In this document: positions 1 through 38,997 of the stretch, piece after piece
Numbering within the stretch: position 1 is the first letter of the stretch
Layout: the number at the start of each line of letters is the position of its first letter
From: Nephrocerus scutellatus
Lineage: Eukaryota > Arthropoda > Insecta > Diptera > Pipunculidae
Length of the DNA stretch: 64,000 nucleotides
NCBI GenBank assembly: GCA_947095585.1
Contig: OX352761.1
Location: forward strand, 60,938,832-61,002,831
Reading direction: 5' to 3'
The notes under the pieces: generated by a model
The model's database searches: none
What the model saw: only the letters and a program-made list of their open reading frames with translations
What the model was told of the DNA's origin: nothing
Made by a program: the position numbers and the translations under genes

Positions 1-1245
1 ATGCGAAATGGAAAAAACCCAAGCGATCTGTCACAAGAGAAAACCACCAACAACACGAGAGAGATGAGAGAACTACAAAGCTGCAAGCCTACAAAGAGGC
101 AAAGACAACCAAGAGGCAAATATTATAAAAGGATTAGCACATGAAGAATTGCTCTCTTTGGTCTGCATCAGTGAGACTGTTCACTTCAACAGTGGGACAC
201 CAAAAACGGTAAGTGAGCAGTGAAAAATTAAAACGCCTCGAGGAGATATCAGCAGCATCAGCAACTACCGGAAATTGACACAAAAGCATTTACCGTAAGC
301 GAGACACCCGAACAACATAATTTACAAGAACTACCCACGAAGCTAGAGACGGAGGAATTTTAAAGGCGTGGTACAGGACAATTAACGTTGGTCGGCGCTG
401 GAATCAGGTTAGCCAAATTCCCAGTAGTATTAGTAGTTTAGAATCCCCTTTCTTTGTCTCGAGACTCTGGCGGGCCTTATAGGACTCCATCTCGAGACTC
501 TGAAAACCTCGATAGGGAGAGATTCCCCTTGTTAGATAGAAACCCTTCGAACTCAGGACTCTGGCGGGCCTTATAGAACTCCATCTTGAGTTTCGATTCT
601 CGTAGGGCCGAGTTTTCTCATTTAGTAGAAAGTGAACAGTGAAAGATCTGCCTCTCTCTATTAAATCTAGTTCAGAAACCCCTTTCTTTGTCTCGAGACT
701 CTGGCGGGCCTTATAGGACTCCATCTCGAGACTCTGAAAACCTCGATAGGGAGAGATTCCCCTTGTTAGATAGAAACCCTTCGAACTCAGGACTCTGGCG
801 GGCCTTATAGGACTCCAGGCCTTATAGGACTCCATCTTGAGTTTCGATCTCTCGTATGGCCGAGTTTTCCCATTTAGCGGGGAGCGAGTGGTGAAAGACC
901 TGCTCCTTCCGACTAAATCCCGTAGAGACAAATTCCCCTTAAAGGCGCCTGAAGTGCGAACCAAAGTTTCTTGCCCGTACCACGTCGTTACGAGACCCGA
1001 GTCAGCGGCCAAGAAATCAGGCGTGACGGCAGAAGAACAAGGAGAAACCCCAAAGCGAAACCAGGCGAAACAAATTAAATCAAATCAAAGGAAAGCAATT
1101 TAATAATTATAATATATAATAATATTCAACCAAATTTTACGGAGTCAATAAAGAAATAATTTTGTAACGAAAACAACGGCTTATTAGTTAATAGGCAAAC
1201 GACCCTGGACGCCGGCAAGCGTACCCCGGCATTTACCTCGTTACA
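1..1245 (+). repeat. G1 LTR, copy A, cut by the window start
   Basis: Matches 4809-6053 and 9617-10862. By comparison with the complete LTR at 9359, about 263 nt of the 5' end lie outside the window. It contains the TATA element (about 131), a splice-donor-like GGTAAGTGAG near 210 and a 234-bp internal repeat (starts 449 and 683). It ends in CCTCGTTACA just before the primer site at 1248. Confidence 0.9.
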
Positions 1246-1948
1246 AATGGCGCCCGAGCATGGACCCCGTTAAAGAAATAAATAGCCCCCCAAGTCAAGT
1301 TTTCCAAAAAAAAAAAATAACATATAACTTAATAATAGGCAGTATAATAAGAAAAAAAAATAATCTAAATCGACGGCAGAGAGTGTAAAACTTGAGGAAA
1401 ATCTAGCAAAGAATACCCCAAAATGGTAAAAACAAGTTGGGTCTACGAGCTGAAAAAGGGAGAACTTGCGGTACTTGCGGAAGAATTCGGCTTGGAAGCA
1501 AGTGGTACTGTTGAGGAATTGCGTAAACGGTTTTCGGATCTCATCAACAGCGAAAGCCTTACAGAAGATCAGATAGCCCGCCTGAAGGAACTAGAGGTAC
1601 GTGGCGCGCGAACCCCTTCGCCGATCTCACCTATAACGGGACCAGCGTGTCTAGAAATACCGAAGTCATCAAGGGAGAGTCAAATAAAAATCGCCCCAAA
1701 CGAACGTACATCGCCGATCCCACCGCTTACGGGACCAGCGTGCTTAGAAGCACCGAAGCCATCCAGGGAGATTCAAACAACATTTGTTTCAAATGAACGT
1801 ACATCCCAATACCCTGCACTCATCGACCAAGTGAGAAAGTGGTCAGTGAAATACGACGGCGGAAAGGAACCGCTGGCATTTGTTGAACGCGTGGAGGAGC
1901 TGGCTGATGTGTATAATCTTGACAAGGACTTGTTGCCTCGAACAATGC
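1246..1948 (+). pseudogene. G1 leader and gag 5' fragment, copy A
   Basis: The primer-binding site TGGCGCCCGAGCATGGAC starts at 1248 and an A-rich leader of about 175 nt follows. Gag starts at ATG 1423 and is open for about 175 codons, covering the SAP-like N-terminal domain and a proline/serine-rich linker. At 1948 it switches abruptly to E1 LTR sequence, so the 224-codon open frame that runs to 2097 is a chimera. Compare intact gag at 11041-12207. Confidence 0.85.
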
Positions 1949-2352
1949 GTATAAAATTTGAGGAAAATCGGGTTAATTTTTTAAAAAAAAAATTTAATGG
2001 GAGCCGAAGGGCCTCAAATTTTAATAGAAAGTATTGTCGCCGGAAATATACATCTGTGCACAATTTCAATAAAATCGGGATATGGGAAGTGGGTTAAAAA
2101 TTTATCAGAAAATCTGACCACCCAGCCAGCCAGCCCGCCACGTGCACGCGCAGTTTATATAGAGAATTTAAAAAGGGATCGCTTGATCTCATTCAATTCT
2201 TTAAGCAGTCACCACTTATAGCTGACGATTTCCCCCCACCAGCGGTAAGGGATCCAGAGCTCTAGCTTTAATACTCCTAATAATAAAGATCCGTTTTGAA
2301 AAATTAAAAATATTTGTTTTTTTTTAAATAAATGTGAATCCTTTATTAAAAT
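1949..2352 (+). repeat. E1 5' LTR (5'-truncated), copy B
   Basis: This AT-rich stretch ends directly at a tRNA-Ser-like primer site (2353). It carries a TATA-like TTTATATAGAG near 2152, a putative start region TCTTTAAGCAGTCACC, a donor-like GCGGTAAGGG near 2243 and AATAAA signals. The upstream end is lost at the array junction. A ~70-bp part (2170-2240) is also found at 29086-29163 in front of E3. Confidence 0.65.
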
Positions 2353-2370
2353 TGGCGCAGTCGGTAGGAT
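2353..2370 (+). other. E1 primer-binding site
   Basis: TGGCGCAGTCGGTAGGAT resembles the tRNA-Ser-type primer site of Drosophila 17.6/297-like errantiviruses. It follows the LTR directly. The same site lies at 7160-7177 in copy C. Confidence 0.75.
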
Positions 2371-2702
2371 TGACTAAATAGAACGAATATCTATTAATTT
2401 AAAAAGTCAATCCGTGAAATGAACAAAAACGCGAAAATTTGCAAATCGCGTGAAACATTGAAAGTGAAAAGTGTTCAAGTGATGGACGAATATTAAAAAA
2501 ATTCAATGTTAAAACACTAAATAAAGTGAAAAGTGAAAACCACTTGACCGAATTTAGTGATAAAAAATTATTCGAACGAAAATCGAATATTGAAACGTAA
2601 ATTATTTAGTAACCAAGATTACCAAAAATAATTAATTTTACGAAACCTTATTTAGAGGAAATAATTTAAAGTAAAGTGAAGAAAATTATGTATATGAACA
2701 AT
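2371..2702 (+). other. E1 untranslated leader (first part), copy B
   Basis: AT-rich, rich in GTGAAA runs, with no coding potential seen. It links the primer site to gag and is interrupted by the jockey fragment at 2715-3225; the leader resumes at 3238 and reaches gag at 3323. Confidence 0.6.
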
Positions 2703-2714
2703 AATAAAACAAAT

Positions 2715-3225
2715 TTTTTTTTTTTTTGTTTAGGTGAAGGAGGAAAATCTTGAAAAAGACCCAATGTGGGTACTGTGGGACTCACACCCACTAAAAACCT
2801 CCTCCCTTGTTAGTATTAAAACTAGTCTTGATAGGCTAACTATTAATTTTCGTGTCAGTTCTTTGGGATTGTACTAAATAATTTTAAACAGTTGGAAAAC
2901 TTCTTAGTTTTCCAGCGCTACTAAAATTTTTTTTTAAATTTAACCCAACTCTAACGGATTGATCCGTTTAAGTCGCCTCACAACATTTTGATTGTGAAGC
3001 AAACTTGATGCTTCCACATTAACGTGTTGGTTTAGCCGAACTTTATGCTTTGTAGCAAATTTCTTTATTTCCTCCACCACTGATGGGATTTTGATGTCTC
3101 TATGAATATCAGTATTGCGAACATACCAAGGTGCATTCAGTATATAACGTAGTACTTTGTTTTGAAAAGTTTGGATACTTTGAAGATTAGACCGCTTATC
3201 ACAGCCCCATAGTTGATTTTTTTTT
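2715..3225 (-). mobile_element. R4: 5'-truncated jockey-type non-LTR fragment, copy B
   Basis: On the minus strand an open stretch (about 2940-3215) reads like the extreme C-terminus of a jockey-clade reverse transcriptase: a WGC-(x)n-IQTFQNK-like segment, NAPWYVRN, an IPSV segment and a final RRLKRINPLEL-type tail. A T run at 2715 is the poly(A) tail on the other strand. A 12-bp target duplication, AATAAAACAAAT, flanks it at 2703-2714 and 3226-3237. It sits in the leader of E1 and predates the tandem array, since copy C has it at 7541-8051. Confidence 0.85.
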
Positions 3226-3322
3226 AATAAAACAAATACAAAAATAATTTCATAAAAATTGAGGGAAATTATGAACAATCAATAAAAAATCAAAACAAAA
3301 TGAAGAAAAGTGGTATAATCTA

Positions 3323-4200
3323 ATGCCCCAACCTGATCGACAAATGAAGAGGATTAAAGAACAATTAAGGAAACAACGTAAATTCAACCATTACAAACAG
3401 CAACAGTCATCTAATAATTCAAGCTCCGAAGAGGACGACGAAGGCATCATGATAAATAATCAACATGAACAGCAACAACCACAGCTAGGAAATGGTAATA
3501 ATATTAATAATAATAATGTAATTTTAAAAAGTCTACAATTAAACCCATTAAAATACATAGAAAGACTTAATACTTTTGATGGAAGAACGGAAGATCTTCC
3601 AATTTTTATTCAAAATGTCGATGACATTATTCCCACTTTATTGGAATACAATGATCAGGGCCAAAAAATGTGTATTAATTTGTTAAAATCAAAATTTATA
3701 GGTAGAGCAAGACAAAGTATAGAAATTCATACCCACGACATGGACAGATATCAAAGCTATGCTAATAGAAAATTTCGGTGGCTTTAAAAATAGCATATAT
3801 ATGAGAAATTGAGAAATTCTCAGTACAGAGGGGATGTTATAAAATTTTATAACTACATTCAGAAAACCCTCTCTTCATTAAATCAAAAATACCAACAAGA
3901 ATATAACCTCTTAGATAATTCTAGAAATAATCAAGCGGCACTTAATATCTTTAAAGAAAAAATGCCAACTCATATGAGAACAATCCTCTATGCTCTAAAA
4001 CCAAACACCATGAAGTTAGCACTTTATGAGTTAAATAGTGCGGATTTGTTATAAGACAACACAACGATGTAGACAGTTACAATGAAATACAAAAACACTA
4101 TAATAAAAAATTAGAAAATAGGTATGAGTACAAAAATAGTAATATTTTTAAAAACCCTAATAACCCCTTCAGAAATAATTACAATAGGGAAAATAATTAT
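3323..4200 (+). pseudogene. E1 gag, N-terminal two-thirds, copy B
   Basis: Starts at ATG 3323 (MPQPDRQMKRIKEQLR). Gln/Asn-rich and acidic N-terminus, then a capsid-like helical region (YIERLNTFDGRTEDLPIFIQNVDDII) typical of 17.6/297-type errantivirus Gag. The frame breaks near 3785 and again near 4050 through a one-base loss that copy C does not share. The sequence ends at the R1 insertion: target duplication AATAGGGAAAATAATTAT at 4183-4200. The rest of gag lies across R1 at 21902. Confidence 0.8.
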
Positions 4201-4545
4201 TTTTTTTTTTTTGTTTTTTTGAGGTGAAAATGCTCTTTTACGCACGTAGTGCCGGACTCTTTCGTCTCTGAACTACCGACTAAAAACTCCTCCCATATGC
4301 AGACGTTAATCCATTCTGGAACTACTTTTCGTATTACATCGGAATGGTGTCTCGTGAATGACCTTCCAGGTTACTTCTTTTCTAGTTATCTATTTCATTT
4401 TGTTGTCTTCTGTGCTGGTAATCCATTGCAGATTTCTTCAATCGCAGTATTTTTGTTATGTATTTCACTACAATTTCCCAGTTTGATCTTTGGGATAACA
4501 TCACAGTCACAATATTGTCAGGCGTTAAATTCTCGGTCTTTCTTT
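4201..4545 (-). mobile_element. R1 3' end (poly(A) tail, 3' UTR, end of ORF2), copy B
   Basis: The T-rich stretch at 4201-4220 is the tail of R1 on the minus strand. 4382-4545 encodes the last ~54 residues of its ORF2. Its right edge is the G1 LTR copy B. It is a duplicate of 9015-9358. Confidence 0.85.
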
Positions 4546-6053
4546 TGTAACGACGAAAAATTTGAACTACAATTTTCGTCTTACACCCACTGTGCACGCA
4601 CGGAGATCAAATGCATGCAAAAGCCCAGCGTAACAACACAACACGTGCGTGCAAACAAGTACAGCAGGACACGCACGCACGAAGAAAAAATCAACAAGTG
4701 CTAATCGAATCATGCATGGCTACACAGCGCATGCATGCAAATAAATACAGCATAGCAACTCAACACGTGCATGCAAACAAGTATGTACGAAGTAACGGAG
4801 GTGAGAAAATGCGAAATGGAAAAAACCCAAGCGATCTGTCACAAGAGAAAACCACCAACAACACGAGAGAGATGAGAGAACTACAAAGCTGCAAGCCTAC
4901 AAAGAGGCAAAGACAACCAAGAGGCAAATATTATAAAAGGATTAGCACATGAAGAATTGCTCTCTTTGGTCTGCATCAGTGAGACTGTTCACTTCAACAG
5001 TGGGACACCAAAAACGGTAAGTGAGCAGTGAAAAATTAAAACGCCTCGAGGAGATATCAGCAGCATCAGCAACTACCGGAAATTGACACAAAAGCATTTA
5101 CCGTAAGCGAGACACCCGAACAACATAATTTACAAGAACTACCCACGAAGCTAGAGACGGAGGAATTTTAAAGGCGTGGTACAGGACAATTAACGTTGGT
5201 CGGCGCTGGAATCAGGTTAGCCAAATTCCCAGTAGTATTAGTAGTTTAGAATCCCCTTTCTTTGTCTCGAGACTCTGGCGGGCCTTATAGGACTCCATCT
5301 CGAGACTCTGAAAACCTCGATAGGGAGAGATTCCCCTTGTTAGATAGAAACCCTTCGAACTCAGGACTCTGGCGGGCCTTATAGAACTCCATCTTGAGTT
5401 TCGATTCTCGTAGGGCCGAGTTTTCTCACTTAGTAGAAAGTGAACAGTGAAAGATCTGCCTCTCTCTATTAAATCTAGTTCAGAAACCCCTTTCTTTGTC
5501 TCGAGACTCTGGCGGGCCTTATAGGACTCCATCTCGAGACTCTGAAAACCTCGATAGGGAGAGATTCCCCTTGTTAGATAGAAACCCTTCGAACTCAGGA
5601 CTCTGGCGGGCCTTATAGGACTCCAGGCCTTATAGGACTCCATCTTGAGTTTCGATCTCTCGTATGGCCGAGTTTTCCCATTTAGCGGGGAGCGAGTGGT
5701 GAAAGACCTGCTCCTTCCGACTAAATCCCGTAGGGACAAATTCCCCTTAAAGGCGCCTGAAGTGCGAACCAAAGTTTCTTGCCCGTACCACGTCGTTACG
5801 AGACCCGAGTCAGCGGCCAAGAAATCAGGCGTGACGGCAGAAGAACAAGGAGAAACCCCAAAGCGAAACCAGGCGAAACAAATTAAATCAAATCAAAGGA
5901 AAGCAATTTAATAATTATAATATATAATAATATTCAACCAAATTTTACGGAGTCAATAAAGAAATAATTTTGTAACGAAAACAACGGCTTATAAGTTAAT
6001 AGGCAAACGACCCTGGACGCCGGCAAGCGTACCCTGGCATTTACCTCGTTACA
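4546..6053 (+). repeat. G1 LTR, copy B (1508 bp)
   Basis: Begins TGTAACGACG and ends CCTCGTTACA, so its termini TGTAACGA/TCGTTACA are inverted repeats. Left flank is CTTT, as for copy C. Differences from copies A and C are scattered single bases, e.g. ACCCTGG for ACCCCGG near 6032. Confidence 0.93.
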
Positions 6054-6756
6054 AATGGCGCCCGAGCATGGACCCCGTTAAAGAAAAAAATAGCCCCCCA
6101 AGTCAAGTTTTCCAAAAAAAAAAAATAACATATAACTTAATAATAGGCAGTATAATAAGAAAAAAAAATAATCTAAATCGACGGCAGAGAGTGTAAAACT
6201 TGAGGAAAATCTAGCAAAGAATACCCCAAAATGGTAAAAACAAGTTGGGTCTACGAGCTGAAAAAGGGAGAACTTGCGGTACTTGCGGAAGAATTCGGCT
6301 TGGAAGCAAGTGGTACTGTTGAGGAATTGCGTTAACGGTTTTCGGCTCTCATCAACAGCGAAAGCCTTACAGAAGATCAGATAGCCCGCCTGAAGGAACT
6401 AGAGGTACGTGGCGCGCGAACCCCTTCGCCGATCTCACCTATAACGGGACCAGCGTGTCTAGAAATACCGAAGTCATCAAGGGAGAGTCAAATAAAAATC
6501 GCCCCAAACGAACGTACATCGCCGATCCCACCGCTTACGGGACCAGCGTGCTTAGAAGCACCGAAGCCATCCAGGGAGATTCAAACAACATTTGTTTCAA
6601 ATGAACGTACATCCCAATACCCTGTACTCATCGACCAAGTGAGAAAGTGGTCAGTGAAATACGACGGCGGAAAGGAACCGCTGGCATTTGTTGAACGCGT
6701 GGAGGAGCTGGCTGATGTGTATAATCTGGACAAGGACTTGTTGCCTCGAACAATGC
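6054..6756 (+). pseudogene. G1 leader and gag 5' fragment, copy B
   Basis: Primer site at 6056. Gag ATG at 6231, with a nonsense change (TTGCGTTAACGG) at about 6333 that copies A and C lack. It stops at the array junction at 6756, where E1 LTR sequence takes over. Confidence 0.85.
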
Positions 6757-7540
6757 GTATAAAATTTGAGGAAAATCTGGTTAATTTTTTTAAAAAAAAA
6801 TTTAATGGGAGCCGTAGGGCCTCAAATTTTAATAGAAAGTATTGTCACCGGAAATATACATCTGTGCACAATTTCAATAAAATCGGGATATGGGAAGTGG
6901 GTTAAAAATTTATCAGAAAATCTGACCACCCAGCCAGCCAGCCCGCCACGTGCACGCGCAGTTTATATAGAGAATTTAAAAAGGGATCGCTTGATCTCAT
7001 TCAATTCTTTAAGCAGTCACCACTTATAGCTGACGATTTCCCCCCACCAGCGGTAAGGGATCCAGAGCTCTAGCTTTAATACTCCTAATAATAAAGATCC
7101 GTTTTGAAAAATTAAAAATATTTGTTTTTTTTAAATAAATGTGAATCCTTTATTAAAATTGGCGCAGTCGGTAGGATTGACTAAATAGAACGAATATCTA
7201 TTAATTTAAAAAGTCAATCCGTGAAATGAACAAAAACGCGAAAATTTGCAAATCGCGTGAAACATTGAAAGTGAAAAGTGTTCAAGTGATGGACGAATAT
7301 TAAAAAAATTCAATGTTAAAACACTAAATAAAGTGAAAAGTGAAAACCACTTGACCGAATTTAGTGATAAAAAATTATTCGAACGAAAATCGAATTATCG
7401 AACGAAAATCGAATATTGAAACGTAAATTATTTAGTAACCAAGATTACCAAAAATAATTAATTTTACGAAACCTTATTTAGAGGAAATAATTTAAAGTAA
7501 AGTGAAGAAAATTATGTATATGAACAATAATAAAACAAAT

Positions 7541-8051
7541 TTTTTTTTTTTTTTGTTTAGGTGAAGGAGGAAAATCTTGAAAAAGACCCAATGTGGGTAC
7601 TGTGGGACTCACACCCACTAAAAACCTCCTCCCTTGTTAGTATTAAAACTAGTCTTGATAGGCTAACTATTAATTTTCGTGTCAGTTCTTTGGGATTGTA
7701 CTAAATAATTTTAAACAGTTGGAAAACTACTAAGTTTTCCAGCGCTACTAAAATTTTTTTTTAAATTTAACCCAACTCTAACGGATTGGTCCGTTTAAGT
7801 CGCCTCACAACATTTTGATTGTGAAGCAAACTTGATGCTTCCACATTAACGTGTTGGTTTAGCCGAACTTTATGCTTTGCAGCAAATTTCTTTATTTCCT
7901 CCACCACTGATGGGATTTTGATGTCTCTATGAATATCAGTATTGCGAACATACCAAGGTGCATTCAGTATATAACGTAGTACTTTGTTTTGAAAAGTTTG
8001 GATACTTTGAAGATTAGACCGCTTATCACAGCCCCATAGTTGATTTTTTTT
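7541..8051 (-). mobile_element. R4: jockey fragment, copy C
   Basis: Same fragment as at 2715-3225, with target duplication AATAAAACAAAT at 7529-7540 and 8052-8063. Confidence 0.85.
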
Positions 8052-8148
8052 AATAAAACAAATACAAAAATAATTTCATAAAAATTGAGGGAAATTATGA
8101 ACAATCAATAAAAAATCAAAACAAAATGAAGAAAAGTGGTATAATCTA

Positions 8149-9014
8149 ATGCCCCAACCTGATCGACAAATGAAGAGGATTAAAGAACAATTAAGGAAAC
8201 AACGTAAATTCAACCATTACAAACAGCAACAGTCATCTAATAATTCAAGCTCCGAAGAGGACGACGAAGGCATCATGATAAATAATCAACATGAACAGCA
8301 ACAACCACAGCTAGGAAATGGTCATAATATTAATAATAATAATGTAATTTTAAAAAGTCTACAATTAAACCCATTAAAATACATAGAAAGACTTAATACT
8401 TTTGATGGAAGAACGGAAGATCTTCCAATTTTTATTCAAAATGTCGATGACATTATTCCCACTTTATTGGAATACAATGATCAGGGCCAAAAAATGTGTA
8501 TTAATTTGTTAAAATCAAAATTTATAGGTAGAGCAAGACAAAGTATAGAAATTCATACCCACGACATGGACAGATATCAAAGCTATGCTAATAGAAAATT
8601 TCGGTGGCTTTAAAAATAGCATACATATGAGAAATTGAGAAATTCTCAGTACAGAGGGGATGTTATAAAATTTTATAACTACATTCTTCATTAAATCAAA
8701 AATACCAACAAGAATATAACCTCTTAGATAATTCTAGAAATAATCAAGCGGCACTTAATATCTTTAAAGAAAAAATGCCAACTCATATGAGAACAATCCT
8801 CTATGCTCTAAAACCAAACACCATGAAGTTAGCACTTTATGAGTTAAATAGTGCAGGATTTGTTATAAGACAACACAACGATGTAGACAGTTACAATGAA
8901 ATACAAAAACACTATAATAAAAAATTAGAAAATAGGTATGAGTACAAAAATAGTAATATTTTTAAAAACCCTAATAACCCCTTCAGAAATAATTACAATA
9001 GGGAAAATAATTAT
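8149..9014 (+). pseudogene. E1 gag, N-terminal part, copy C
   Basis: ATG at 8149. The first 154 codons match copy B apart from one substitution (N to H). The frame is lost after about 8613; a 13-nt deletion near 8685 is private to this copy. From 8775 an 80-codon stretch ends in an Asn-rich nucleocapsid-like region that breaks at the R1 target duplication and continues in frame at 21902. Non-functional as it stands. Confidence 0.8.
8997..9014. repeat. 18-bp target-site duplication of R1 (left copies)
   Basis: AATAGGGAAAATAATTAT occurs at 8997-9014, at 4183-4200 in the duplicated copy, and at 21884-21901. It brackets R1 exactly, with the poly(A)/T tract adjoining the left copy. Confidence 0.95.
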
Positions 9015-9194
9015 TTTTTTTTTTTGTTTTTTTGAGGTGAAAATGCTCTTTTACGCACGTAGTGCCGGACTCTTTCGTCTCTGAACTACCGACTAAAAAC
9101 TCCTCCCATATGCAGACGTTAATCCATTCTGGAACTACTTTTCGTATTACATCGGAATGGTGTCTCGTGAATGACCTTCCAGGTTACTTCTTTT

Positions 9195-9358
9195 CTAGTT
9201 ATCTATTTCATTTTGTTGTCTTCTGTGCTGGTAATCCATTGCAGATTTCTTCAATCGCAGTATTTTTGTTATGTATTTCACTACAATTTCCCAGTTTGAT
9301 CTTTGGGATAACATCACAGTCACAATATTGTCAGGCGTTAAATTCTCGGTCTTTCTTT
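9195..9358 (-). pseudogene. R1 ORF2, last ~54 codons
   Basis: Minus-strand open frame ending with a stop at 9195. When the CTTT duplication is allowed for, its frame is continuous with the ORF2 segment at 17727-17956 on the far side of G1, which proves that G1 landed in an open ORF2. The residues are basic and show no recognised domain. 9015-9194 is the 3' UTR and tail. Confidence 0.85.
9355..9358. repeat. Target-site duplication of G1
   Basis: CTTT at 9355-9358 and again at 17727-17730 directly flank the two G1 LTRs. Four bases are normal for this group. Confidence 0.9.
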
Positions 9359-10862
9359 TGTAACGACGAAAAATTTGAACTACAATTTTCGTCTTACACC
9401 CACTGTGCACGCACGGAGATCAAATGCAAAAGCCCAGCGTAACAACACAACAAGTGCGTGCAAACAAGTACAGCAGGACACGCACGCACGAAGAAAAAAT
9501 CAACAAGTGCTAATCGAATCATGCATGGCTACACAGCGCATGCATGCAAATAAATACAGCATAGCAACTCAACACGTGCATGCAAACAAGTATGTACGAA
9601 GTAACGGAGGTGAGAAAATGCGAAATGGAAAAAACCCAAGCGATCTGTCACAAGAGAAAACCACCAACAACACGAGAGAGATGAGAGAACTACAAAGCTG
9701 CAAGCCTACAAAGAGGCAAAGACAACCAAGAGGAAAATATTATAAAAGGATTAGCACATGAAGAATTGCTCTCTTTGGTCTGCATCAGTGAGACTGTTCA
9801 CTTCAACAGTGGGACACCAAAAACGGTAAGTGAGCAGTGAAAAATTAAAACGCCTCGAGGAGATATCAGCAGCATCAGCAACTACCGGAAATTGACACAA
9901 AAGCATTTACCGTAAGCGAGACACCCGAACAACATAATTTACAAGAACTACCCACGAAGCTAGAGACGGAGGAATTTTAAAGGCGTGGTACAGGACAATT
10001 AACGTTGGTCGGCGCTGGAATCAGGTTAGCCAAATTCCCAGTAGTATTAGTAGTTTAGAATCCCCTTTCTTTGTCTCGAGACTCTGGCGGGCCTTATAGG
10101 ACTCCATCTCGAGACTCTGAAAACCTCGATAGGGAGAGATTCCCCTTGTTAGATAGAAACCCTTCGAACTCAGGACTCTGGCGGGCCTTATAGAACTCCA
10201 TCTTGAGTTTCGATTCTCGTAGGGCCGAGTTTTCTCATTTAGTAGAAAGTGAACAGTGAAAGATCTGCCTCTCTCTATTAAATCTAGTTCAGAAACCCCT
10301 TTCTTTGTCTCGAGACTCTGGCGGGCCTTATAGGACTCCATCTCGAGACTCTGAAAACCTCGATAGGGAGAGATTCCCCTTGTTAGATAGAAACCCTTCG
10401 AACTCAGGACTCTGGCGGGCCTTATAGGACTCCAGGCCTTATAGGACTCCATCTTGAGTTTCGATCTCTCCTATGGCCGAGTTTTCCCATTTAGCGGGGA
10501 GCGAGTGGTGAAAGACCTGCTCCTTCCGACTAAATCCCGTAGGGACAAATTCCCCTTAAAGGCGCCTGAAGTGCGAACCAAAGTTTCTTGCCCGTACCAC
10601 GTCGTTACGAGACCCGAGTCAGCGGCCAAGAAATCAGGCGTGACGGCAGAAGAACAAGGAGAAACCCCAAAGCGAAACCAGGCGAAACAAATTAAATCAA
10701 ATCAAAGGAAAGCAATTTAATAATTATAATATATAATAATATTCAACCAAATTTTACGGAGTCAATAAAGAAATAATTTTGTAACGAAAACAACGGCTTA
10801 TTAGTTAATAGGCAAACGACCCTGGACGCCGGCAAGCGTACCCCGGCATTTACCTCGTTACA
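9359..10862 (+). repeat. G1 5' LTR
   Basis: TGTAACGACG...CCTCGTTACA, 1504 bp. It holds a TATAAAAGG box at 9741-9749, the donor-like GGTAAGTGAG at 9825-9834, a direct repeat of 234 bp (starts 10066 and 10300) rich in GGCGGGCCTTATAGGACTCC, and AATAAAGAAATAA polyadenylation-type signals near 10765. Minus-strand open frames in it are side products of the repeats. Confidence 0.95.
9741..9749 (+). promoter_or_regulatory. G1 core promoter TATA box
   Basis: TATAAAAGG lies in the middle of the LTR, so U3 is about 380-410 bp and R/U5 is unusually long (about 1.1 kb). Copies lie at about 131, 4932 and 16630-16638. A start about 30 bp downstream is expected. Confidence 0.7.
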
Positions 10863-10864
10863 AA

Positions 10865-10882
10865 TGGCGCCCGAGCATGGAC
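10865..10882 (+). other. G1 primer-binding site
   Basis: TGGCGCCCGAGCATGGAC begins two bases after the LTR. It resembles the 3' end complement of insect tRNA-Lys with about two mismatches. Confidence 0.8.
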
Positions 10883-11040
10883 CCCGTTAAAGAAAAAAAT
10901 TGCCCCCCAAGTCAAGTTTTCCTAAAAAAAAAAAATAACATATAACTTAATAATAGGCAGTATAATAAGAAAAAAAAATAATCTAAATCGACGGCAGAGA
11001 GTGTAAAACTTGAGGAAAATCTAGCAAGGAATACCCCAAA
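10883..11040 (+). other. G1 untranslated leader
   Basis: A-rich, 158 nt, with no open frame; it connects the primer site to the gag ATG. Confidence 0.6.
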
Positions 11041-12207
11041 ATGGTAAAAACAAGTTGGGTCTACGAGCTGAAAAAGGGAGAACTTGCGGTACTTGCGGAA
11101 GAATTCGGCTTGGAAGCAAGTGGTACTGTTGAGGAATTGCGTAAACGGTTTTCGGCTCTCATCAACAGCGAAAGCCTTACAGAAGATCAGATAGCCCGCC
11201 TGAAGGAACTAGAGGTACGTGGCGCGCGAACCCCTTCGCCGATCTCACCTATAACGGGACCAGCGTGTCTAGAAATACCGAAGTCATCAAGGGAGAGTCA
11301 AATAAAAATCGCCCCAAACGAACGTACATCGCCGATCCCACCGCTTACGGGACCAGCGTGCTTAGAAGCACCGAAGCCATCCAGGGAGAGTCAAACAACA
11401 TTTGTTTCAAATGAACGTACATCCCAATACCCTGCACTCATCGACCAAGTGAGAAAGTGGTCAGTGAAATACGACGGCGGAAAGGAACCGCTGGCATTTG
11501 TTGAACGCGTGGAGGAGCTGGCTGATGTGTATAATCTGGACAAGGACTTGTTGCCTCGAACAATGCCTGAGCTGTTACGCGATCGTGCGCTGGCTTGGTA
11601 CAGGAACAACAACCGACAGTGGCAGCGATGGAGCGATTTCAAAAGGGACTTTATGAAATTTTTTCTCCCGAACCGTTATTTAGAACGATTGGAAGATGAC
11701 ATCCAACAACGGCACCAAAAACCTCGCGAGTGTTTCAAAGACTTCGTCCTCGCCCTCCAAACACTGATGCGCCACGCCAACTACACCGATGAACAACGGC
11801 TAGATTGCATATTCGAGAACGCCTTGCAGGAGTACCAGCTATACATACGCCGTAGAGATTTCCATCACCTGGAAGAGTTGATAGAAATGGCCGAGGATTT
11901 CAAGAGGATTCGGGGAAACAAAGAACCAGTTGCGGCCACACACAGACGCAGCCCACAGCCGATACACTGTGGAATTACACCAGACGCCGAGTTTCTCACT
12001 AACCCACGAACAGCATGCCGCCGATGTGGACAACAGGGGCATTTCCACAGAGATTGCAAATACGAAACGCTACTTTTTTGCTGGGAATGTGGCCGGAGGA
12101 ATGTTCGCACTAAAGACTGTTGCAGGTTAAACGCGGGAAACGGAAGAGGGGACCGGAACGAGCGGGGCACATCCGGACCTCAGACACCCATGCCTCGAAG
12201 ACAGTAG
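11041..12207 (+). CDS. gag: G1 Gag polyprotein
   Basis: 388 codons from ATG 11041 (context CAAAATGG). Residues ~1-45 look like a SAP-type helix-turn-helix module (LKKGELAVLAEEFGLEASG, then VEELRKRF). A Pro/Ser linker with repeated TGPACLE follows, then a capsid-like region (~135-300: WYRNNNRQWQRWSDFKRDF, RYLERLEDDIQQRHQ, RPRECF-like, LQTLMRH). The nucleocapsid has one complete zinc knuckle (CRRCGQQGHFHRDC) and one degenerate one (CWECG...CC). It appears intact, the only full gag in the window, and overlaps pol by 88 nt in the -1 frame. It should form the particle shell and bind RNA. Confidence 0.9.
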   Translation: MVKTSWVYELKKGELAVLAEEFGLEASGTVEELRKRFSALINSESLTEDQIARLKELEVRGARTPSPISPITGPACLEIPKSSRESQIKIAPNERTSPIPPLTGPACLEAPKPSRESQTTFVSNERTSQYPALIDQVRKWSVKYDGGKEPLAFVERVEELADVYNLDKDLLPRTMPELLRDRALAWYRNNNRQWQRWSDFKRDFMKFFLPNRYLERLEDDIQQRHQKPRECFKDFVLALQTLMRHANYTDEQRLDCIFENALQEYQLYIRRRDFHHLEELIEMAEDFKRIRGNKEPVAATHRRSPQPIHCGITPDAEFLTNPRTACRRCGQQGHFHRDCKYETLLFCWECGRRNVRTKDCCRLNAGNGRGDRNERGTSGPQTPMPRRQ

Positions 12208-14507
12208 GGTTCCTCAAGCAAGACGCGCGCCGGGTGTACGCGCATGTAATCCTCAACGGTACACCAGCGATCGCAACCATAGACACGGGGGTAACACGAA
12301 GTTTTGCTAGTGAAGATTTCATCAAAAAGCGGGGACAGTTCCAGACCAAACCACGACCGACAAAAATAATTGCTCGTATGGCCGACGGAACTCCGAGGGA
12401 AATTTACAACTGCATTGATGTCGAAGTGAAACTAGGAACCGCACGATGTCAAACTACTTTTCTAGTACTACCAGGAGCGATAGACGACGTGCTGCTGGGA
12501 ATGGACTGTCTAGCTCAACTTGGACTTGTCATGAGCTGCGGAGGTTCATCACTCTCAGTAGATAACACCAGTGGAAGCAGATTTCAGGAAGGAGTCACCA
12601 AGCTTACCATGGTCTCGTTAGATAACACCAGTGGAAGCAGATTTCAGGAAGGAGTCACCAAGCTTACCATGGTCCCGTTAGATAACACCAGTGGAAGCAG
12701 ATTTCAAGGTGGAGTCACCAAGCTTACCATGGTCAGGAACATAGAGGATGAAGGCGAGTTAATCAAGTCATTCTTAGATGAGGAATTGCCCAAGTTTGAG
12801 AGGTTACAAGGAACGACAGTCATAGCCAGCCACAAAATCATATTGTCTGATGATCGCCCCGTTAAACAACGGTACTTTCCCAAGAATCCAGCAATGCAGG
12901 AGATAATCAACGCGGAAGTCGACGAGTTATTAAGCAAAGGATGTATTGAGCCATCGCACAGCCCTTACAGCGCCCCTATTGTGCTAGTACGAAAGAAGAC
13001 AGGAAAGTGGAGGCTTTGCATCGATTACCGACAGCTTAATTCCAAGTCTGTCCCAGATGCATACCCGCTACCCAGAATCAACCACATCCTGGAAAAGCTG
13101 AGGAATGCAAAATATATCAGCAGTCTGGACCTAAAAAATGGTTACTAGCAAATCCCGATGCACGAAGAAAGCAAACAGTTCACAGCGTTCACAGTCCCGG
13201 GTCGTGGATTATTTCAGGGGCGGGTCATGCCATTTGGCCTACACTCAGCGCCCGCCACCTTTCAAAGAGCGCTAGATCAGGTAATTGGCTCCGAGATGGA
13301 ACACCACGCATTTGCCTATTTGGACGATATCATCGTGGTTGGAAATACGTTAGAGCACCACATGCAGAATCTGAGGGAAGTCTTCCGGCGATTGCGAGCA
13401 GCAAACCTCAATATTAATCTAGAAAAGTGTGAGTTCTTTAAAAAAGAGCCTAAATACCTCGGACACGTCGTTAGCGAAGAAGGAATCCACACAGACCCGG
13501 AGAAAGTAGCCGCTATACGTGAACTGCAACTACCAAAGAATGTTCGGGAGCTGCGCCGCTGCTTGGGAATCGCTTCGTGGTACAGGCGTTTCGTACCAGA
13601 ATTTTCCAATATCGTCCACCCACTCACACGTCTGCTCAAGAAGGGAAAACATTAGAAGTGGACGGAACAAGAGCAAGAGGCTTTCGAGGGACTCAAATTG
13701 AGGCTCACAGAGGCACCTGTACTGGCATGCCCAGACTTTATCCAAAAGTTCACCCTACAAACCGACGCCAGCGACTATGGTTTGGGTGCGGTACTTACGC
13801 AAGAGGTAAATGGCCACGAGAAAGTGATCGCCTATGCCAGCCGTCACCTGAATAAAGCCGAAATGAACTTTTCCCCAACAGAGAAGGAATGCCTAGCGAT
13901 CGTATGGGGGATCAGAAAAATGAGGCCCTACCTGGAAGGTTACAGGTTCAGCGTAGTTACGGACCATCTTTCTCTTAAGTGGCTCAACTCGATCGAAAGC
14001 CCCGCAGGACGTATCGCACGATGGGCATTGGAACTACAGCAATACAGCTTCGACATCCAATACCGCAGAGGTAAGCTTAACGTGATTGCTGACGCTCTGT
14101 CGCGACAACCCCTAGAAGTATTCGCCAGGTTGGCCGATACTCCGCCCGAACGACAGGAATGTGGCTGGATCAAGCGCAAGATAGCGGAAACACTAGAGAA
14201 ACCAGAGAAATTTCCGGACTATACTATGCAAAATGGACAGCTGTACCGTCATATACACAGACAAGCGGGCGACGACGATTGTGCCCCATGGAAGCTCTGT
14301 GTGCCGACCCATTGTCGTGACAGGGTGATGCGTGAGAACCATGACGATGCAACAGCTGGACACATGGGTGTTCGGAAGACGACGGAGAGAGTATGCGACA
14401 GGTACTATTGGCCAGGGATATTTCGCGATATCCGGCGACACGTCAACAAATGCCAAGTCTGTCAACGCTTTAAGCCGGGTCAGCAGCATCCAGCAGGAAA
14501 ATGCTGA
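12120..14507 (+). pseudogene. pol: G1 pol: protease, reverse transcriptase, RNase H, integrase zinc finger
   Basis: Frame is -1 to gag. Protease: IDTG at 12279-12290 (expected IDTGA/S; here IDTGVT) and LLGMDCL. A 20-residue segment is then repeated three times (12561-12740). RT: LCIDYRQLN, MPFGLHSAPATFQ and YLDD (DD codons 13323-13328). RNase H: TDASDYGLGAVL, EKECLAIVWG, and D of TDH. The integrase HHCC finger is at about 14338-14470. Two Trp codons have become TAG (13146 in GYWQIP, and 13653), and a one-base loss in an A-run near 14497 shifts the frame, so translation ends at 14507. Inactive as found. Confidence 0.9.
12558..12740 (+). repeat. Three in-frame 60-bp repeats between G1 protease and RT
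   Basis: Units start at 12561, 12621 and 12681 and encode DNTSGSRFQEGVTKLTMV-like 20-residue blocks. They differ by only a few bases. The position is a linker between domains. Confidence 0.95.
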
Positions 14508-15091
14508 CGCAGGTACCAGAAGAACCTTGGTCGATATAGTGCGCAGACTTCATGGGACCCTTCCCTCGCTCTAAACATGGCAACACTATGCTACTGGTTT
14601 TCTTCGACAAGTTCTCCAAATGGACAAAGCTGATACCACTACGCACAGCCACAGCAGAAGGAGTGCAAAAGGCATTCAGGGAACGTGTCCTGGCACGATT
14701 TGGCATACCTAAGGTTCTTGTTACCGATAATGGAACCCAATTCACAGCTCGAGGTTTCCAACGATTTATGCGCGAGATGGGAACTCGACAGCAATTTACT
14801 GCACCCTACACGCCACAAGAGAGCCCAACAGAAAGGACCAACCGGACAGTCAAAATGATCATTGCACAACTCCTGGGTGCTGACCAACGGCTTTGGGATG
14901 AGAAGCTTCCGGAAATAATGCTGGCGATAAACACTGCGAAGTCTGAAACAACCGGATTCAGCCCAGCATTCTTGTTACAAGGACGCGAGCCACGGGTCCC
15001 AAAAACCTTGTACGACGAAGTGACCCCTGCTACAGTAACGATAGTGACTCCGGCAAACAAGGCTTTACGCCTGCGAGAGGTGTTCAAAATT
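14501..15091 (+). pseudogene. G1 integrase catalytic core
   Basis: Same polyprotein as the upstream pol but in the next frame. Asp codons at 14546-14548 (CADF) and 14726-14728 (TDNGTQF) and Glu at 14831-14833 (PTERTN) make the DDE set. A TAG at 14537 interrupts the start, so the open frame really begins at ATG 14552, after the first Asp. The C-terminal part reaches LRLREVFKIVR and then, with no break, passes into the Ulp1 domain; the usual GPY/F-type end of integrase is not seen. Confidence 0.88.
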
Positions 15092-15762
15092 GTGCGGTAT
15101 CCCCAAGGGCAAGGCGGGATCTGCATCGGCAAGGAGGAGTACCGAATTTTGGGACCGGGCAATTTCCTGAACGATGCCATCATCGACTTCTACCTTCGAT
15201 GGGTCGCCGATCTTCGACTTTCGGAGGAGGATAGGAGCCACCTACACATCTGCAGCACCTTCTTCTATTCCCGACTGACCAGTGGAGGGGAAAGCGAGAC
15301 CGAACGACATGACGGAGTGCGCCGATGGACAAGAAAGCTGGATATCTTCGGGAAAACACATGTGATCGTGCCGAACGAAAATAAACACTGGTACCTCATA
15401 ATAATTTGCAACCCAGGAGATGCCATACGGGAAAACTTTGGCCGGCCGGCTATCCTCGTTTTCAACTCGTTGGTAGCAGCCTACGCAACCACGCGGTCGA
15501 GATTGTTCGTGACTACCTCAGGCGAGAGTTCGTGGCGAAATTTCCCGAAGCAGCACCAGTCGAGTTCGGTGAAAGAACCTTACCTGTATTCCACGTCAGG
15601 ACCCCGCAACAACCAAATTTCACCGATTGTGGGGTGTACCTCCTGCAGTTCGTGGAATCCTTCTTGGAAGACCCTATGCGAGAATACTCGGATGACCGAA
15701 GTGCCTGGTTCGAACACCAAATAATAAGTAAGAAGAGAGAGGGGATAAGGGCGCTCCTTTGA
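15092..15762 (+). pseudogene. Ulp1/SENP-type cysteine protease domain fused to G1 integrase
   Basis: The integrase frame continues into a C48 peptidase signature: GPGNFLNDAIIDFYLRWV, HICSTFFYSRL, VRRWTRKLDIF, then KHWYLIIICNP with the catalytic His (15386-15388) and Trp. ILVFNSL holds Asn (AAC 15464-15466) where the family has the catalytic Asp. A frameshift close by moves the rest to the next frame: RNHAVEIVRDYLRREF, then PQQPNFTDCGVYLLQF with the catalytic Cys (15628-15630). Order and spacing are closest to SENP6/7-type deSUMOylases. The family cleaves SUMO or related modifiers; the role here is unknown. Stop TGA at 15760. This copy lacks an intact triad and frame. Confidence 0.88.
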
Positions 15763-15791
15763 TTCCTGTCGACAAACGACAACAACCAAAA

Positions 15792-15971
15792 CATCAACGC
15801 ATCTGGCAACAACCTCAGCAACAATCACGGACAAGGCATCAACACATCTGGCAACAACCTCAGCAACAATCACGGACAAGGCATCAACACATCTGGCAAC
15901 AACCTCAGCAACAATCATTGACAAGGCATCAACACATCTGGCAACAACCTCGGCAACAACCACGGACAAGG
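15792..15971 (+). repeat. 45-bp minisatellite, four units
   Basis: Units at 15792, 15837, 15882 and 15927, near identical. Length is a multiple of three, so all frames stay open: Gln-rich in one, Asn/Gly-rich in the frame of the protease, Val/Ala-rich on the minus strand. Confidence 0.95.
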
Positions 15972-16236
15972 CAACAACACGCATGATGACAACCCCAGCG
16001 ACAAACACGACCTCAGCCACACTAAGGGTGTCGAACAAGGCGACGGAGGGTGCAGGACACACAAGAGGCGCAGAGAAGCGAGAACACCGGAGGAGGAACT
16101 CGAAGACATAGTGGAACAGGCACGCAGAGACCATGTCCTAGGCAAATCAATGTCGTTTCAGCGATTCATCGGTGGGAAAAGGGTGAAAATACAGCTCAGT
16201 CGCCAAGGAGAAGCAAAGGTCACAGTCACCGGTAGT

Positions 16237-16246
16237 AAGGGGGGAG
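16237..16246 (+). other. G1 polypurine tract
   Basis: AAGGGGGGAG directly before the TGTAACG of the 3' LTR; primes plus-strand synthesis. Confidence 0.9.
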
Positions 16247-17726
16247 TGTAACGACGAAAAATTTGAACTACAATTTTCGTCTTTTACCCACTGTGCACGC
16301 ACGGAGATCAAATGCATGCAAAAGCCCAGCGTAACAACACAAACGTGCGTGCAAATAAGTACAGCAGGGCACGCACGCACGAAGAAAAAATCAACAAGTG
16401 CTAATCGAATCATGCATGGTAACACAGCGCATGCATGCAAATAAATACAGCATAGCAACTCAACACGTGCATGCAAACAAGTATGTACGAAGTAACGGAG
16501 GTGAGAAAAATCCATGGAAAAAACCCAAGCGATCTGTCACAAGAGAAAACCACCAACAACACGAGAGAGATGAGAGAACTACAAAGCTGCAAGCCTACAA
16601 AGAGGCAAAGACAACCAAGAGGCAAATATTATAAAAGGATTAGCACATGAAGAATTGCTCTCTTTGGTCTGCATCAGTGAGACTGTTCACTTCAACAGTG
16701 GGACACCAAAAACGGTAAGTGAGCAGTGAAAAATTAAAACGCCTCGAGGAGATATCAGCAGCATCAGCAACTACCGGAAATTGACACAAAAGCATTTACC
16801 GTAAGCGAGACACCCGAACAACATAATTTACAAGAACTACCCACGAAGCTAGAGACGGAGGAATTTTAAAGGCGTGGTACAGGACAATTAACGTTGGTCG
16901 GCGCTGGAATCAGGTTAGCCAAATTCCCAGTAGTATTAGTAGTTTAGAATCACCTTTCTTTGTCTCGAGACTCTGGCGGGCCTTATAGGACTCCATCTCG
17001 AGACTCTGAAAACCTCGATAGGGAGAGATTCCCCTTGTTAGATAGAAACCCTTCGAACTCAGGACTCTGGCGGGCCTTATAGGACTCCATCTTGAGTTTC
17101 GATTCTCGTAGGGCCGAGTTTTCCCATTTAGTAGAAAGTGAACAGTGAAAGATCTCCCTCTCTCTATTAAATCTAGTTCAGAAACCCCTTTCTTTGTCTC
17201 ATAGGGCCTCATAGGACTCCATCTCGAGACTCTGAAAACCTCGATAGGGAGAGATTCCCCTTGTTAGATAGAAACCCTTCGAACTCAGGACTCTGGCGGG
17301 CCTTATAGGACTCCATCTTGAGTTTCGATCTCTCGTAGGGCCGAGTTTTCCCATTTAGCGGGGATCGAGTGGTGAAAGACCTGCTCCTTCCGACTAAATC
17401 CCGTAGGGACAAATTCCCCTTAAAGGCGCCTGAAGTGCGAACCAAAGTTTCTTGCCCGTACCACGTCGTTACGAGACCCGAGTCAGCGGCCAAGAAACCA
17501 GGCGTGACGGCAGAAGAACAAGGAGAAACCCCAAAGCGAAACCAGACGAAACAAATTAAATCAAATCAAAGGAAAGCAATTTAATAATTATAATATATAA
17601 TAATATTCAACCAAATTTTACGGAGTCAATAAAGAAATAATTTTGTAACGAAAACAACGGCTTATTAGTTAATAGGCAAACGACCTTGGACGCCGGCGAG
17701 CGTACCCCGGCATTTACCTCGTTACA
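16247..17726 (+). repeat. G1 3' LTR
   Basis: 1480 bp, TGTAACGACG...CTCGTTACA. Lacks the ~24-bp duplication (GGCCTTATAGGACTCC) present in the 5' LTR near 10434 and differs in the second 234-bp repeat (ATAGGGCCTCATAGG). TATAAAAGG at 16630-16638. Followed by CTTT. Confidence 0.95.
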
Positions 17727-31935: not shown

Positions 31936-32746
31936 AAAACGCTCAAGGTAAAGATGAACATTGTCAAATAATAATAGATATTTTGGCCGTTACAGGATCT
32001 TACAAGGACTTTGAGATAAGGAACGACCTGTTGTATAAGTTTGTAGCCGGAAATTACCTTCTAGTGGTTCCAAAAATCATGCAGAGGGAAATTATAAGAA
32101 ACGCACACGAGTCGGGTCATATCAATTCAGTAAAAGTGGAAGATATTCTTAAACAAGACTACTACATTCCGATCGTGACCGCTGCATTGGAATGCGTAAT
32201 TGCAAATTGCGTGGCATGCATTCTAGCGTCAAGGAGTGGTATAAGGCAGTCAGCAACTTGCAAACCACGTTGAATTCCACGGTGTCCAGAAGCACAAAGA
32301 GGAGTCCTTTTCAGTTAATGTTCGGAGCGGTTATTAGAAAGGAATGTGATCTTGTGTTGAAGACGTTACTTGAAGAAGCAATTCTGGATGACTTCGAGAG
32401 TAGTCGCGATGCAGTAAGAACAGCAGCAAAGGAAGAAATACATAAAGTTCAGGAAAAAAATAAGCAAAACTATGATCCGAAGCGAAAGCAACCTCGAAAA
32501 TACGAAGTGGGAGATCTAGTCGCTATTCAACGCACGCAGTTTGGAGTTGGATTTAAGTTATGCCCAAAGTTTTTCGGGCATTATGAAGTCATTAAGGCCA
32601 AAAGGAATGATCGGTACGATGTACGCAAGGTTGGCCAGCATGACGGACCAGGCCAGACATCCACGGCCGTAGATCTTATGAAATCATGGGTCAGTGGCGA
32701 AGGAGCCAGCGAAGATGACTATGAAGATGCTTCGATGCTCGACTGA
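31936..32746 (+). pseudogene. E3 integrase without catalytic core
   Basis: 31983-32240 gives the HHCC finger (HESGHINSVKVED, CVIANCVACIL). The sequence then jumps straight to the region after the catalytic Glu (TTLNSTVSRSTKRSPFQLMFG) and a C-terminal tail (YEVGDLVAIQRTQFG, KFFGHYEVIK, YDVRKVG). The DDE core, roughly 150 residues, is missing, so integration by this copy is not possible. Confidence 0.85.
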
Positions 32747-32910: not shown

Positions 32911-32971
32911 CATTATGTTTCTACTCCTGGTACGTTGCGCAGTCGCCATAGTTTTGGGTCGTTGCGCTACT

Positions 32972-34251
32972 TGTAATGACGAAAATTTTAACAGCAAATT
33001 TTCGTCTTACACCCACTGTGCACGCACGAAGATTAAATGATACAAATAAGCCCAGCATAGCAATACAACACGTGCGTGCAAACAAGTACAGCAGGGCACG
33101 CACGAAGAAAAAATCAACAAGCGCTAACCGAATCATGCATGCAAACGAGTACAGCATGGCAACACAGTGCATGCATGCAAGTGCGCCAAGTATAGCAACA
33201 CAGCCAGCGGAGTATGCACGAAGTAACGGAGATGAGAAAATGCCAAATGGAAAAACCACAGCGATCTGTTACAAGCGTTGTTACACCAACAACGCGAGAG
33301 AGAGGAGAGAGCTACAAAACTGCAAGCCTACAAAGATGCAAAGTCAACCAAGAGGCAAAGATTATAAAAGGAGGAACACATGAAGAATTGTTCTCTTTTG
33401 TCTGCATCAGTGAGACTGTTCACTTCAGTAGTGGGACACCAGAAACGGTAAGTGAACAGTGGACAATTAAAACTCGAAGAGATATCAGCAGCATCGGCAA
33501 CTACCGGACATTGACACAAAAGAATTTACCGCGAGCGAGACTCCCGAACAACATAATTTACATGAGAACTACCCACGAAGCCAAAGACGGAGGAATTTTA
33601 AAGGCAGGGTACAGTTCGGCGCTGGAATCAGGTGAGCCAAATTCCCCAGTGAATAGTTTAGAATCCCCTTTCTTTGTCTCGAGACTCTGGCGGGCCTTAT
33701 AGGACTCCATCTCGATACTCTGAAAACCTCGATATGGAGAGATTCCCCTTTGCTAGGCAGAAACCCTTCGAACTCAGGACTCTGGCGGACCTCATAGGAC
33801 TCCATCCTGAGTTTCGATATCTTTTAGGCCCCAGTTCCCAACTAGTGGGGAGCGAGTGGTGAAAGACCCGCTCCTGCCGACTAATCCCGTAGGGATAATT
33901 CCCGTAAAGGTGCCTGAAGCGTGATCTAACGTTTTTTGCCCGTACCACGTCGTTACGAGACCCGAGTCAGCAGCCAAGGAACTAGGCGTGACGGCAGAAC
34001 AGCAAAGAGAAACCCCAAAGCGAAACCAGGCGTGGCGGCAGAACAACAAGGAGAAACGCCAAACCGAAACCAGGCGAAACAAATTAAATTAAATCAAAGA
34101 GAAATCAATTAATAATTATAATATAAATATTTACCAGAATTTCATGTAGTCAATAAAGAATAAATTTTTGTAACGAAAACAACCGCTTATTAGTTTATAG
34201 GCACACGACACTGGACGCCGGCGAGTGTACCCCGGCATTTACCTCGTTACA
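32972..34251 (+). repeat. G1-family LTR, diverged
   Basis: TGTAATGACG...CCTCGTTACA, about 1280 bp, alignable with the G1 LTR along its length (CACGCACGAAGATTAAATG, TATAAAAGGAGG, GGCGGGCCTTATAGGACTCC) but clearly diverged and with only one copy of the 234-bp repeat. Flanks TACT and AATG differ, so it is not a clean solo LTR. TGGCTCG after it could be a decayed primer site. Confidence 0.88.
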
Positions 34252-34838: not shown

Positions 34839-34839
<1 letters not shown>

Positions 34840-38994: not shown

Positions 38995-38997
38995 CGC

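What the first reader, a model, noticed from the sequence alone, without database searches (positions are those of the whole stretch)
15092..15762. A Ulp1/SENP-like protease domain fused to a gypsy-type integrase
Seen: one continuous frame (14552-15724) runs from integrase (TDNGTQF, PTERTN) into FLNDAIIDFYLRWV, FFYSRL, WTRKLDIF, KHWYLIIICNP; the matching second half, NFTDCGVYLLQF, follows in the next frame. Known: this His-(Asp)-Cys order defines peptidase family C48, and the spacing is SENP6/7-like. Some DNA transposon groups (Kaonashi MULEs) have captured Ulp1 domains; I do not know of a Ty3/gypsy element with one. Inference: a retrotransposon captured a host deSUMOylase domain, perhaps to counter SUMO-dependent piRNA/heterochromatin silencing.
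Basis: partly seen in the sequence, partly recalled or inferred. Interest (0 to 1): 0.93.

Follow-up and report, generated by a model that had tools for sequence, protein, structure and literature searches.

The report
SUMO-protease domain fused to retrotransposon integrase
A broken copy of a jumping gene, probably from a fly, carries a domain resembling the host enzymes that remove the protein tag SUMO in the place where its integrase should end, a combination not seen in the papers we searched; whether working copies with it exist is not known.

Summary
One open frame (14540-15724) runs from a Ty3/gypsy integrase core into a Ulp1/SENP (C48) domain. The domain's second half follows in another frame to 15759. 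Both halves pass Pfam's PF02902 cut-off (E 6e-17, 9e-8); SENP7 is the closest solved structure for both. The domain lies between two LTRs with primer-binding and polypurine sites.

In the 23 integrase relatives (of 46) whose alignment passes residue 185, similarity ends at residues 186-199. 11 of 16 relatives aligned there run on into the usual C-terminal domain; this copy has SENP. Whether the element's own tail follows is only weakly supported.

This copy is dead: stops and frameshifts in pol and in the domain, and by eye Asn at the catalytic Asp. Ulp1 domains are known in Ginger1 and Mutator DNA transposons and non-LTR NeSL/Utopia. My seven paper searches on this question listed none in an LTR element.

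The decisive search for other copies did not complete. A working lineage and a one-off transduced chimera both remain open; I slightly favour the former.

The parts
9359..10862 (+). 5' LTR of the element copy (TGTAAC...GTTACA), shared with the neighbouring copy B in a head-to-tail array
   Evidence: self-BLAST, ends printed
10865..10882 (+). primer-binding site (TGGCGCCCGAGC...), two bases after the LTR; tRNA identity (Lys type) recalled, not tested
   Evidence: sequence printed
11014..12207 (+). gag: Retrotrans_gag; zinc knuckle and SAP-like N-terminus both below cut-off
   Evidence: Pfam PF03732 3.2e-9, PF00098 0.0097, SAP_new25 0.092
12114..13148 (+). pol: aspartyl protease and start of reverse transcriptase, ended by a stop
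   Evidence: PF13975 9.2e-10; RVT_1 profile positions 1-79, 25.9 bits, below its cut-off of 29.6
13149..13655 (+). pol: rest of reverse transcriptase, ended by a stop
   Evidence: RVT_1 1.5e-26
13656..14507 (+). pol: RNase H and integrase zinc-binding domain; frame lost between here and 14540
   Evidence: PF17917 1.9e-39, PF17921 4.6e-22
14540..15097 (+). integrase catalytic core; similarity to relatives ends at residues 186-199 of this frame
   Evidence: PF00665 1.4e-14
15092..15478 (+). first half of the SENP6/7-like C48 domain (contains the catalytic His; the acid position reads Asn by eye), same frame as the integrase core
   Evidence: PF02902 6.1e-17; SENP7 5.4e-21
15475..15762 (+). second half of the C48 domain (contains the Gln and catalytic Cys), in another frame, ended by a stop at 15760
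   Evidence: PF02902 8.9e-8; SENP7 1.1e-11
15792..15980 (+). 45-base tandem repeat, 4.2 copies; one copy holds a stop in the frame of the domain's second half
   Evidence: frames
16096..16251 (+). possible C-terminal tail of the element's pol frame, ending at the LTR start; same frame as the domain's second half
   Evidence: 3 of 2000 shuffles reach the score against P0002, but 922 of 2000 against P0038; tblastn of both relatives' tails against the window gives no match here at E up to 1
16237..16246 (+). polypurine tract directly before the 3' LTR
16247..17726 (+). 3' LTR, 26 of 1476 aligned positions different from the 5' LTR (1.76%)

Best explanation
This is a decayed copy of a Ty3/gypsy LTR retrotransposon in which a SENP6/7-type C48 catalytic domain stands in place of the integrase C-terminal domain, joined in frame just after the catalytic core. 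Shown: the fusion, the swap, and its place between LTR/PBS and PPT/LTR. Inferred: the piece came in through RNA (template switching between element RNA and a SENP messenger), because the domain is not interrupted by an intron and the element ends are kept. Inferred: before decay, integrase was made as an integrase-SENP fusion, perhaps running on into the element's own tail. Inferred, least certain: the fusion brought a SUMO isopeptidase to the pre-integration complex or target chromatin and removed SUMO from silencing or repair proteins, aiding integration or expression.
For: C48 profile matches in both halves and SENP7 matches in both. Integrase core and the domain's first half share one open frame. 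In the 23 integrase relatives whose alignment passes residue 185 (of 46; 22 others were not printed and one, P0046, matches only SENP), similarity stops at residues 186-199. 11 of 16 relatives aligned at the junction run on to the GPY motif; the SH3_Tf2-1 domain is precomputed in 11 of 46 hits. tblastn of two relatives' C-terminal domains finds none at this locus. The domain's second half and the frame that ends at the LTR are in the same frame. LTR, PBS and PPT ends are in place, with LTR divergence 1.76%. The piece starts and ends close to the borders of the catalytic domain. His, Gln and Cys are kept.
Against: Only one copy is known. Losing the SH3-like C-terminal domain should harm a normal integrase (inference). 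By eye the acid of the triad reads Asn. Retention of the tail is weakly supported: it resembles P0002 (3 of 2000 shuffles) but not P0038 (922 of 2000), and tblastn of both tails misses it. Two stops lie between the domain and that tail. Copies A and B in the same array also have foreign DNA in place of pol, so chimera formation may be common and meaningless here. No activity, expression or selection was tested.
Confidence: 0.47

Rival explanations
1. A one-off transduced chimera, as in acutely transforming retroviruses (comparison recalled): a defective element RNA picked up part of a SENP messenger, was copied and integrated once by proteins of intact relatives, and never worked as a family.
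For: Only one copy in the window. The integrase C-terminal domain is missing. Copies A and B next to it keep LTRs and about the first half of gag but have foreign DNA in place of the rest of gag and of pol.
Against: In-frame 5' junction, and a piece that covers about the whole catalytic domain: more order than random breakpoints would usually give.
Confidence: 0.4
2. A SENP retrocopy or fragment dropped into an already dead element by LINE-type retroposition or ectopic recombination.
For: The region is dense in nested and tandem elements.
Against: No poly-A run follows the domain. The integrase C-terminal domain is gone rather than split. The 5' junction is in frame.
Confidence: 0.08
3. An assembly or sequencing artefact that joined an element and a host SENP gene.
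For: Repeat-rich tandem region, hard to assemble.
Against: The PPT and the matching LTR follow within 500 bases on the 3' side, and the 5' junction is in frame.
Confidence: 0.05

Closest known systems
Ginger1 DNA transposons (PMC2836005; passages read)
   Same: Gypsy-type integrase core and a Ulp1 (PF02902) domain in one protein (in some families; others have OTU)
   Different: Ginger1 is a cut-and-paste DNA transposon with inverted repeats; its Ulp1 or OTU domain is additional to a kept GPY/F motif. Here no GPY/F (SH3-like) domain was found and the element has LTRs, gag and RT.
NeSL and Utopia non-LTR retrotransposons (PMC4640811; passages read)
   Same: A retroelement that encodes a Ulp1-like cysteine protease domain (NeSL of nematodes; Utopia-1_TSP)
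   Different: Non-LTR elements with an N-terminal Ulp1-like domain and restriction-like endonuclease; here an LTR element with the domain after the integrase core
Mutator-like elements with Ulp1 domains
   Same: Transposable elements carrying a Ulp1-type domain
   Different: DNA transposons; no integrase-RT polyprotein (recalled)
SENP6/SENP7 and fly Velo (PMC4281951 and PMC8324896; passages read)
   Same: SENP7 is the closest catalytic domain of known structure; same block order His ... Gln, Cys
Bdelloid LTR elements with captured ORF3 genes (PMC5408684; passages read)
   Same: LTR retrotransposons that acquired enzymatic genes
   Different: Acquired genes are extra ORFs for exonuclease and GDSL esterase/lipase, not a C48 domain inside pol

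Membership tests
C48 (Ulp1/SENP) homologue by descent | Match to PF02902 above the curated cut-off | tested here: met
   62.6 and 32.7 bits against 20.7 for the two halves
Active C48 peptidase | Catalytic His, oxyanion Gln and catalytic Cys | tested here: met
   HWYL, and Q...DCG, line up with SENP7
Active C48 peptidase | Catalytic Asp | tested here: inconclusive
   By eye the block RPAILVFNSL against SENP7 RPCILILDSL puts Asn on Asp, but searches do not cover it. P0046 (PF02902 1.8e-31) also has FNSL, though HMMER sets SENP7's Asp on its Phe; P0047 shows Asp in that column
Active C48 peptidase | One uninterrupted frame | tested here: not met
   Halves lie in two frames
Active C48 peptidase | Cleaves SUMO | not testable with these tools
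   needs a bench assay
SENP6/7 subfamily | Closest to SENP6/7 among SENPs | tested here: met
   SENP7 first among 17 and 11 distinct PDB sequences; no tree built
SENP6/7 subfamily | Conserved sequence insertions in the catalytic domain | tested here: inconclusive
   Loops before WTR and before the FNSL block are shorter than in SENP7 and P0046; state in flies unknown
Ty3/gypsy LTR retrotransposon | LTRs, PBS, PPT, and gag-PR-RT-RNaseH-IN order | tested here: met
Ty3/gypsy LTR retrotransposon | Integrase with SH3-like C-terminal (GPY/F) domain | tested here: not met
   No Pfam or tblastn match at the locus; 11 of 16 aligned relatives reach GPY
Ginger1 | DNA transposon with terminal inverted repeats and no RT (lack of RT recalled) | tested here: not met
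   RT and LTRs present

The most novel reading that the evidence does not exclude
A lineage of Ty3/gypsy elements in flies exchanged its integrase targeting domain for a SUMO isopeptidase, so that the integration complex itself strips SUMO from chromatin or from SUMO-dependent silencing factors; the SUMO-binding-like motifs in the integrase tails of two relatives would be the earlier stage of the same strategy.
Probability: 0.2. Interest if true: 0.87.

Novelty: new variant of a known kind. Interest (0 to 1): 0.6.

Why it matters
Ulp1/SENP domains turn up in unrelated transposons, but their role there is open. [quoted passage not shown] If it is a one-off, it is still a clear case of an enzyme domain captured by an LTR element.

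Tried and rejected
Searching the window's own genome for further copies: the genome search was called 20 times, twice after waits of nearly five minutes, and never answered.

Protein database: the first search gave 46 proteins of 2397 candidates, one with PF02902 (P0046, no integrase). A search limited to the SENP stretch gave one Aphis gossypii protein of 86 candidates. A third, set for proteins of about 770-2450 residues, gave none of 104 candidates. I do not read these negatives as proof of absence or of great divergence: one search failed to list P0046, which one search had found.

Viral contigs: five scans, with the SENP piece, the integrase piece (39), the RNase H piece (40), P0046 (41) and alignment A2 (79); none gave a confirmed relative. 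Prokaryote contigs: one short match in a metagenome bin, 37% over query residues 29-71 (L001), not pursued.

Structure prediction of the integrase core plus first half of the domain: block means 52-93 up to residue 140, at most 55 from residue 191 on, mean pLDDT 56. It shows only that the junction lies near the end of a predicted helix (171-190), itself uncertain from 185 on. No fold search was made.

GC3 as a sign of origin: SENP halves 0.63 and 0.59, tail 0.63, rest of the coding region 0.49-0.55. Too weak to use.

Papers looked into without finding a Ulp1 or SUMO-protease domain: PMC6338049 (no hit for SUMO or Ulp) and PMC5741268 (SUMO only in the reference list).

Considered and rejected: an ordinary C-terminal domain misread as SENP (one search finds none at the locus); a Ginger1 transposon (LTRs and RT present); a chromodomain (no Pfam match in the pieces scanned).

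Changed on checking: the tail is now called weakly supported, because one search misses it. For that reason I lowered the best explanation from 0.50 to 0.47 and the novel case from 0.22 to 0.20, raised the first two rivals slightly, and set interest to 0.60.

Full report
What is there. The window holds a Ty3/gypsy element between an LTR at 9359-10862 and one at 16247-17726, with a primer-binding site just after the first and a polypurine tract directly before the second. Gag, aspartyl protease, reverse transcriptase, RNase H, integrase zinc finger and integrase core are recognised by Pfam in that order (the first reverse-transcriptase piece is below its cut-off). Stops break pol at 13146-13148 and 13653-13655, and the frame changes between 14507 and 14540. 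The host is probably a fly: the named integrase relatives are mostly from Drosophila, with Bactrocera, Lucilia and Rhagoletis.

The finding. The frame 14540-15724 continues from the integrase core into a C48 domain: PF02902 at 62.6 bits (cut-off 20.7), with rve in the same ORF. A second frame, to 15759, carries the rest of PF02902 at 32.7 bits. SENP7 is the best of 17 distinct PDB sequences for the first half (E 5.4e-21) and of 11 for the second (E 1.1e-11, list taken up to E 1). The His block (HWYL) and the Gln and Cys block (QQPNFTDCG) align with SENP7. By eye the acid position reads Asn (FNSL) where SENP7 has Asp (LDSL); searches do not cover this block. P0046, a C48 protein from the database, also has FNSL, although HMMER sets SENP7's Asp on the preceding Phe there, and P0047 shows Asp in that column. 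Asn may be a natural variant or decay.

A swap, not an addition. Of 46 database relatives, 24 have an alignment that passes residue 185 of the query or matches the second half; I printed only these and dropped 22. One is P0046, which matches the SENP part. The other 23 match the integrase and end at residues 186-199 (16 of them at 186), where the query turns into SENP. Of 16 relatives aligned across the junction, 11 run on through the basic linker to the GPY motif; the others end, diverge or are cut. SH3_Tf2-1 is precomputed in 11 of the 46; in my own scan it is found in P0002 and P0020, below its cut-off of 30 bits (28.2 and 23.7). By the precomputed labels none of the 46 has both an integrase and a C48 domain. 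tblastn with C-terminal domains of two relatives finds none at the locus; the only match below E 0.01 is at 32453-32593, in another element. In Ty3 itself this C-terminal region is an SH3 fold on a long linker helix and contacts the target-site factor TFIIIB (PMC8632968, passages read). The junction here lies near the end of a predicted helix (low confidence), so the swap is at the targeting end of the integrase.

Return into the element. After the domain come a stop at 15760, a 45-base tandem repeat holding another stop, and a frame that ends at the LTR start. This frame is the one of the domain's second half. Its end resembles the end of relative P0002 (3 of 2000 shuffles reach the score) but not that of P0038 (922 of 2000), and tblastn with both relatives' tails does not find it at E up to 1. 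So it is only weakly supported that the element's own tail is kept and that integrase, SENP and tail once formed one frame.

Age and state. The two LTRs differ at 26 of 1476 positions (1.76%), while the three upstream LTRs of the array (the first cut by the window edge) differ from each other by 0.24-0.40%. The copy is fairly young if LTR3 and LTR4 are its original pair, which the tandem array leaves uncertain. This copy cannot make the fusion enzyme.

Neighbouring copies. Copies A (1252-4545) and B (6054-9358) share LTRs with this copy in a head-to-tail array. They keep about the first half of gag and then have unrelated DNA, with no match to this element's pol pieces. They say nothing on whether other pol-bearing copies have SENP, but they show that this family makes chimeras.

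How it may work. If an intact form existed, integrase would have carried a SUMO isopeptidase on its C-terminal side. [quoted passage not shown] Removing SUMO at or near the new insertion could delay silencing. Alternatively it could act on repair factors, as was suggested for Ginger1 (PMC2836005, passages). All of this is inference. The main rival is a one-off transduced chimera moved by helper proteins, and I rate the two close to even.

Novelty. Ulp1 domains are reported in Ginger1 and Mutator DNA transposons and in NeSL/Utopia non-LTR elements. Of my ten paper searches, seven bore on this question (one search returned nothing) and three on SUMO biology. The listings of those seven, at most 20 papers each, named no LTR retrotransposon with such a domain. 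The library holds open-access PMC papers only, I judged most papers from the listing, and Repbase was not searched.

What is missing. The own-genome search did not complete in 20 tries, and dipteran SENP6/7 genes were not obtained, so copy number, host origin and selection are open.

Noticed in passing
relatives P0002 (residue 405), P0038 (residue 397), P0020: Integrase C-terminal tails of two relatives hold SUMO-interaction-like motifs (VIEISSD, IIEIHSD). The strict pattern, which I set after seeing them, appears in 60 of 5000 and 15 of 5000 shuffles of these tails. P0020 has only a looser LIMLSDD that fails the pattern. Of the 46 relatives scanned, most lack a long tail and only these two match. 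The window's element has no match in three forward frames.
   Followed up: partly
1-17726: Head-to-tail array LTR-A-LTR-B-LTR-C-LTR sharing LTRs; A and B keep about the first half of gag, then have foreign DNA, and are about 99% identical to each other.
   Followed up: partly
11074-11175: The gag N-terminus looks SAP-like (SAP_new25, E 0.092, below cut-off).
   Followed up: no
54607-59903: Three tandem units of about 1.77 kb, over 99% alike, joining what looks by eye like a LINE-type ORF on the minus strand and gypsy-type pol on the plus strand.
   Followed up: no
59142-61515: A second related gypsy element (RT 63% over 158 residues, integrase 49% over 109 residues), without a SENP match.
   Followed up: partly
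34796-48451: Large tandem or nested repeats at offsets of about 4.6-4.8 kb, 94-97% alike.
   Followed up: no
32971-34257: An LTR about 79-85% identical to this element's LTRs; an integrase C-terminal domain of another element lies just upstream at 32453-32593.
   Followed up: partly
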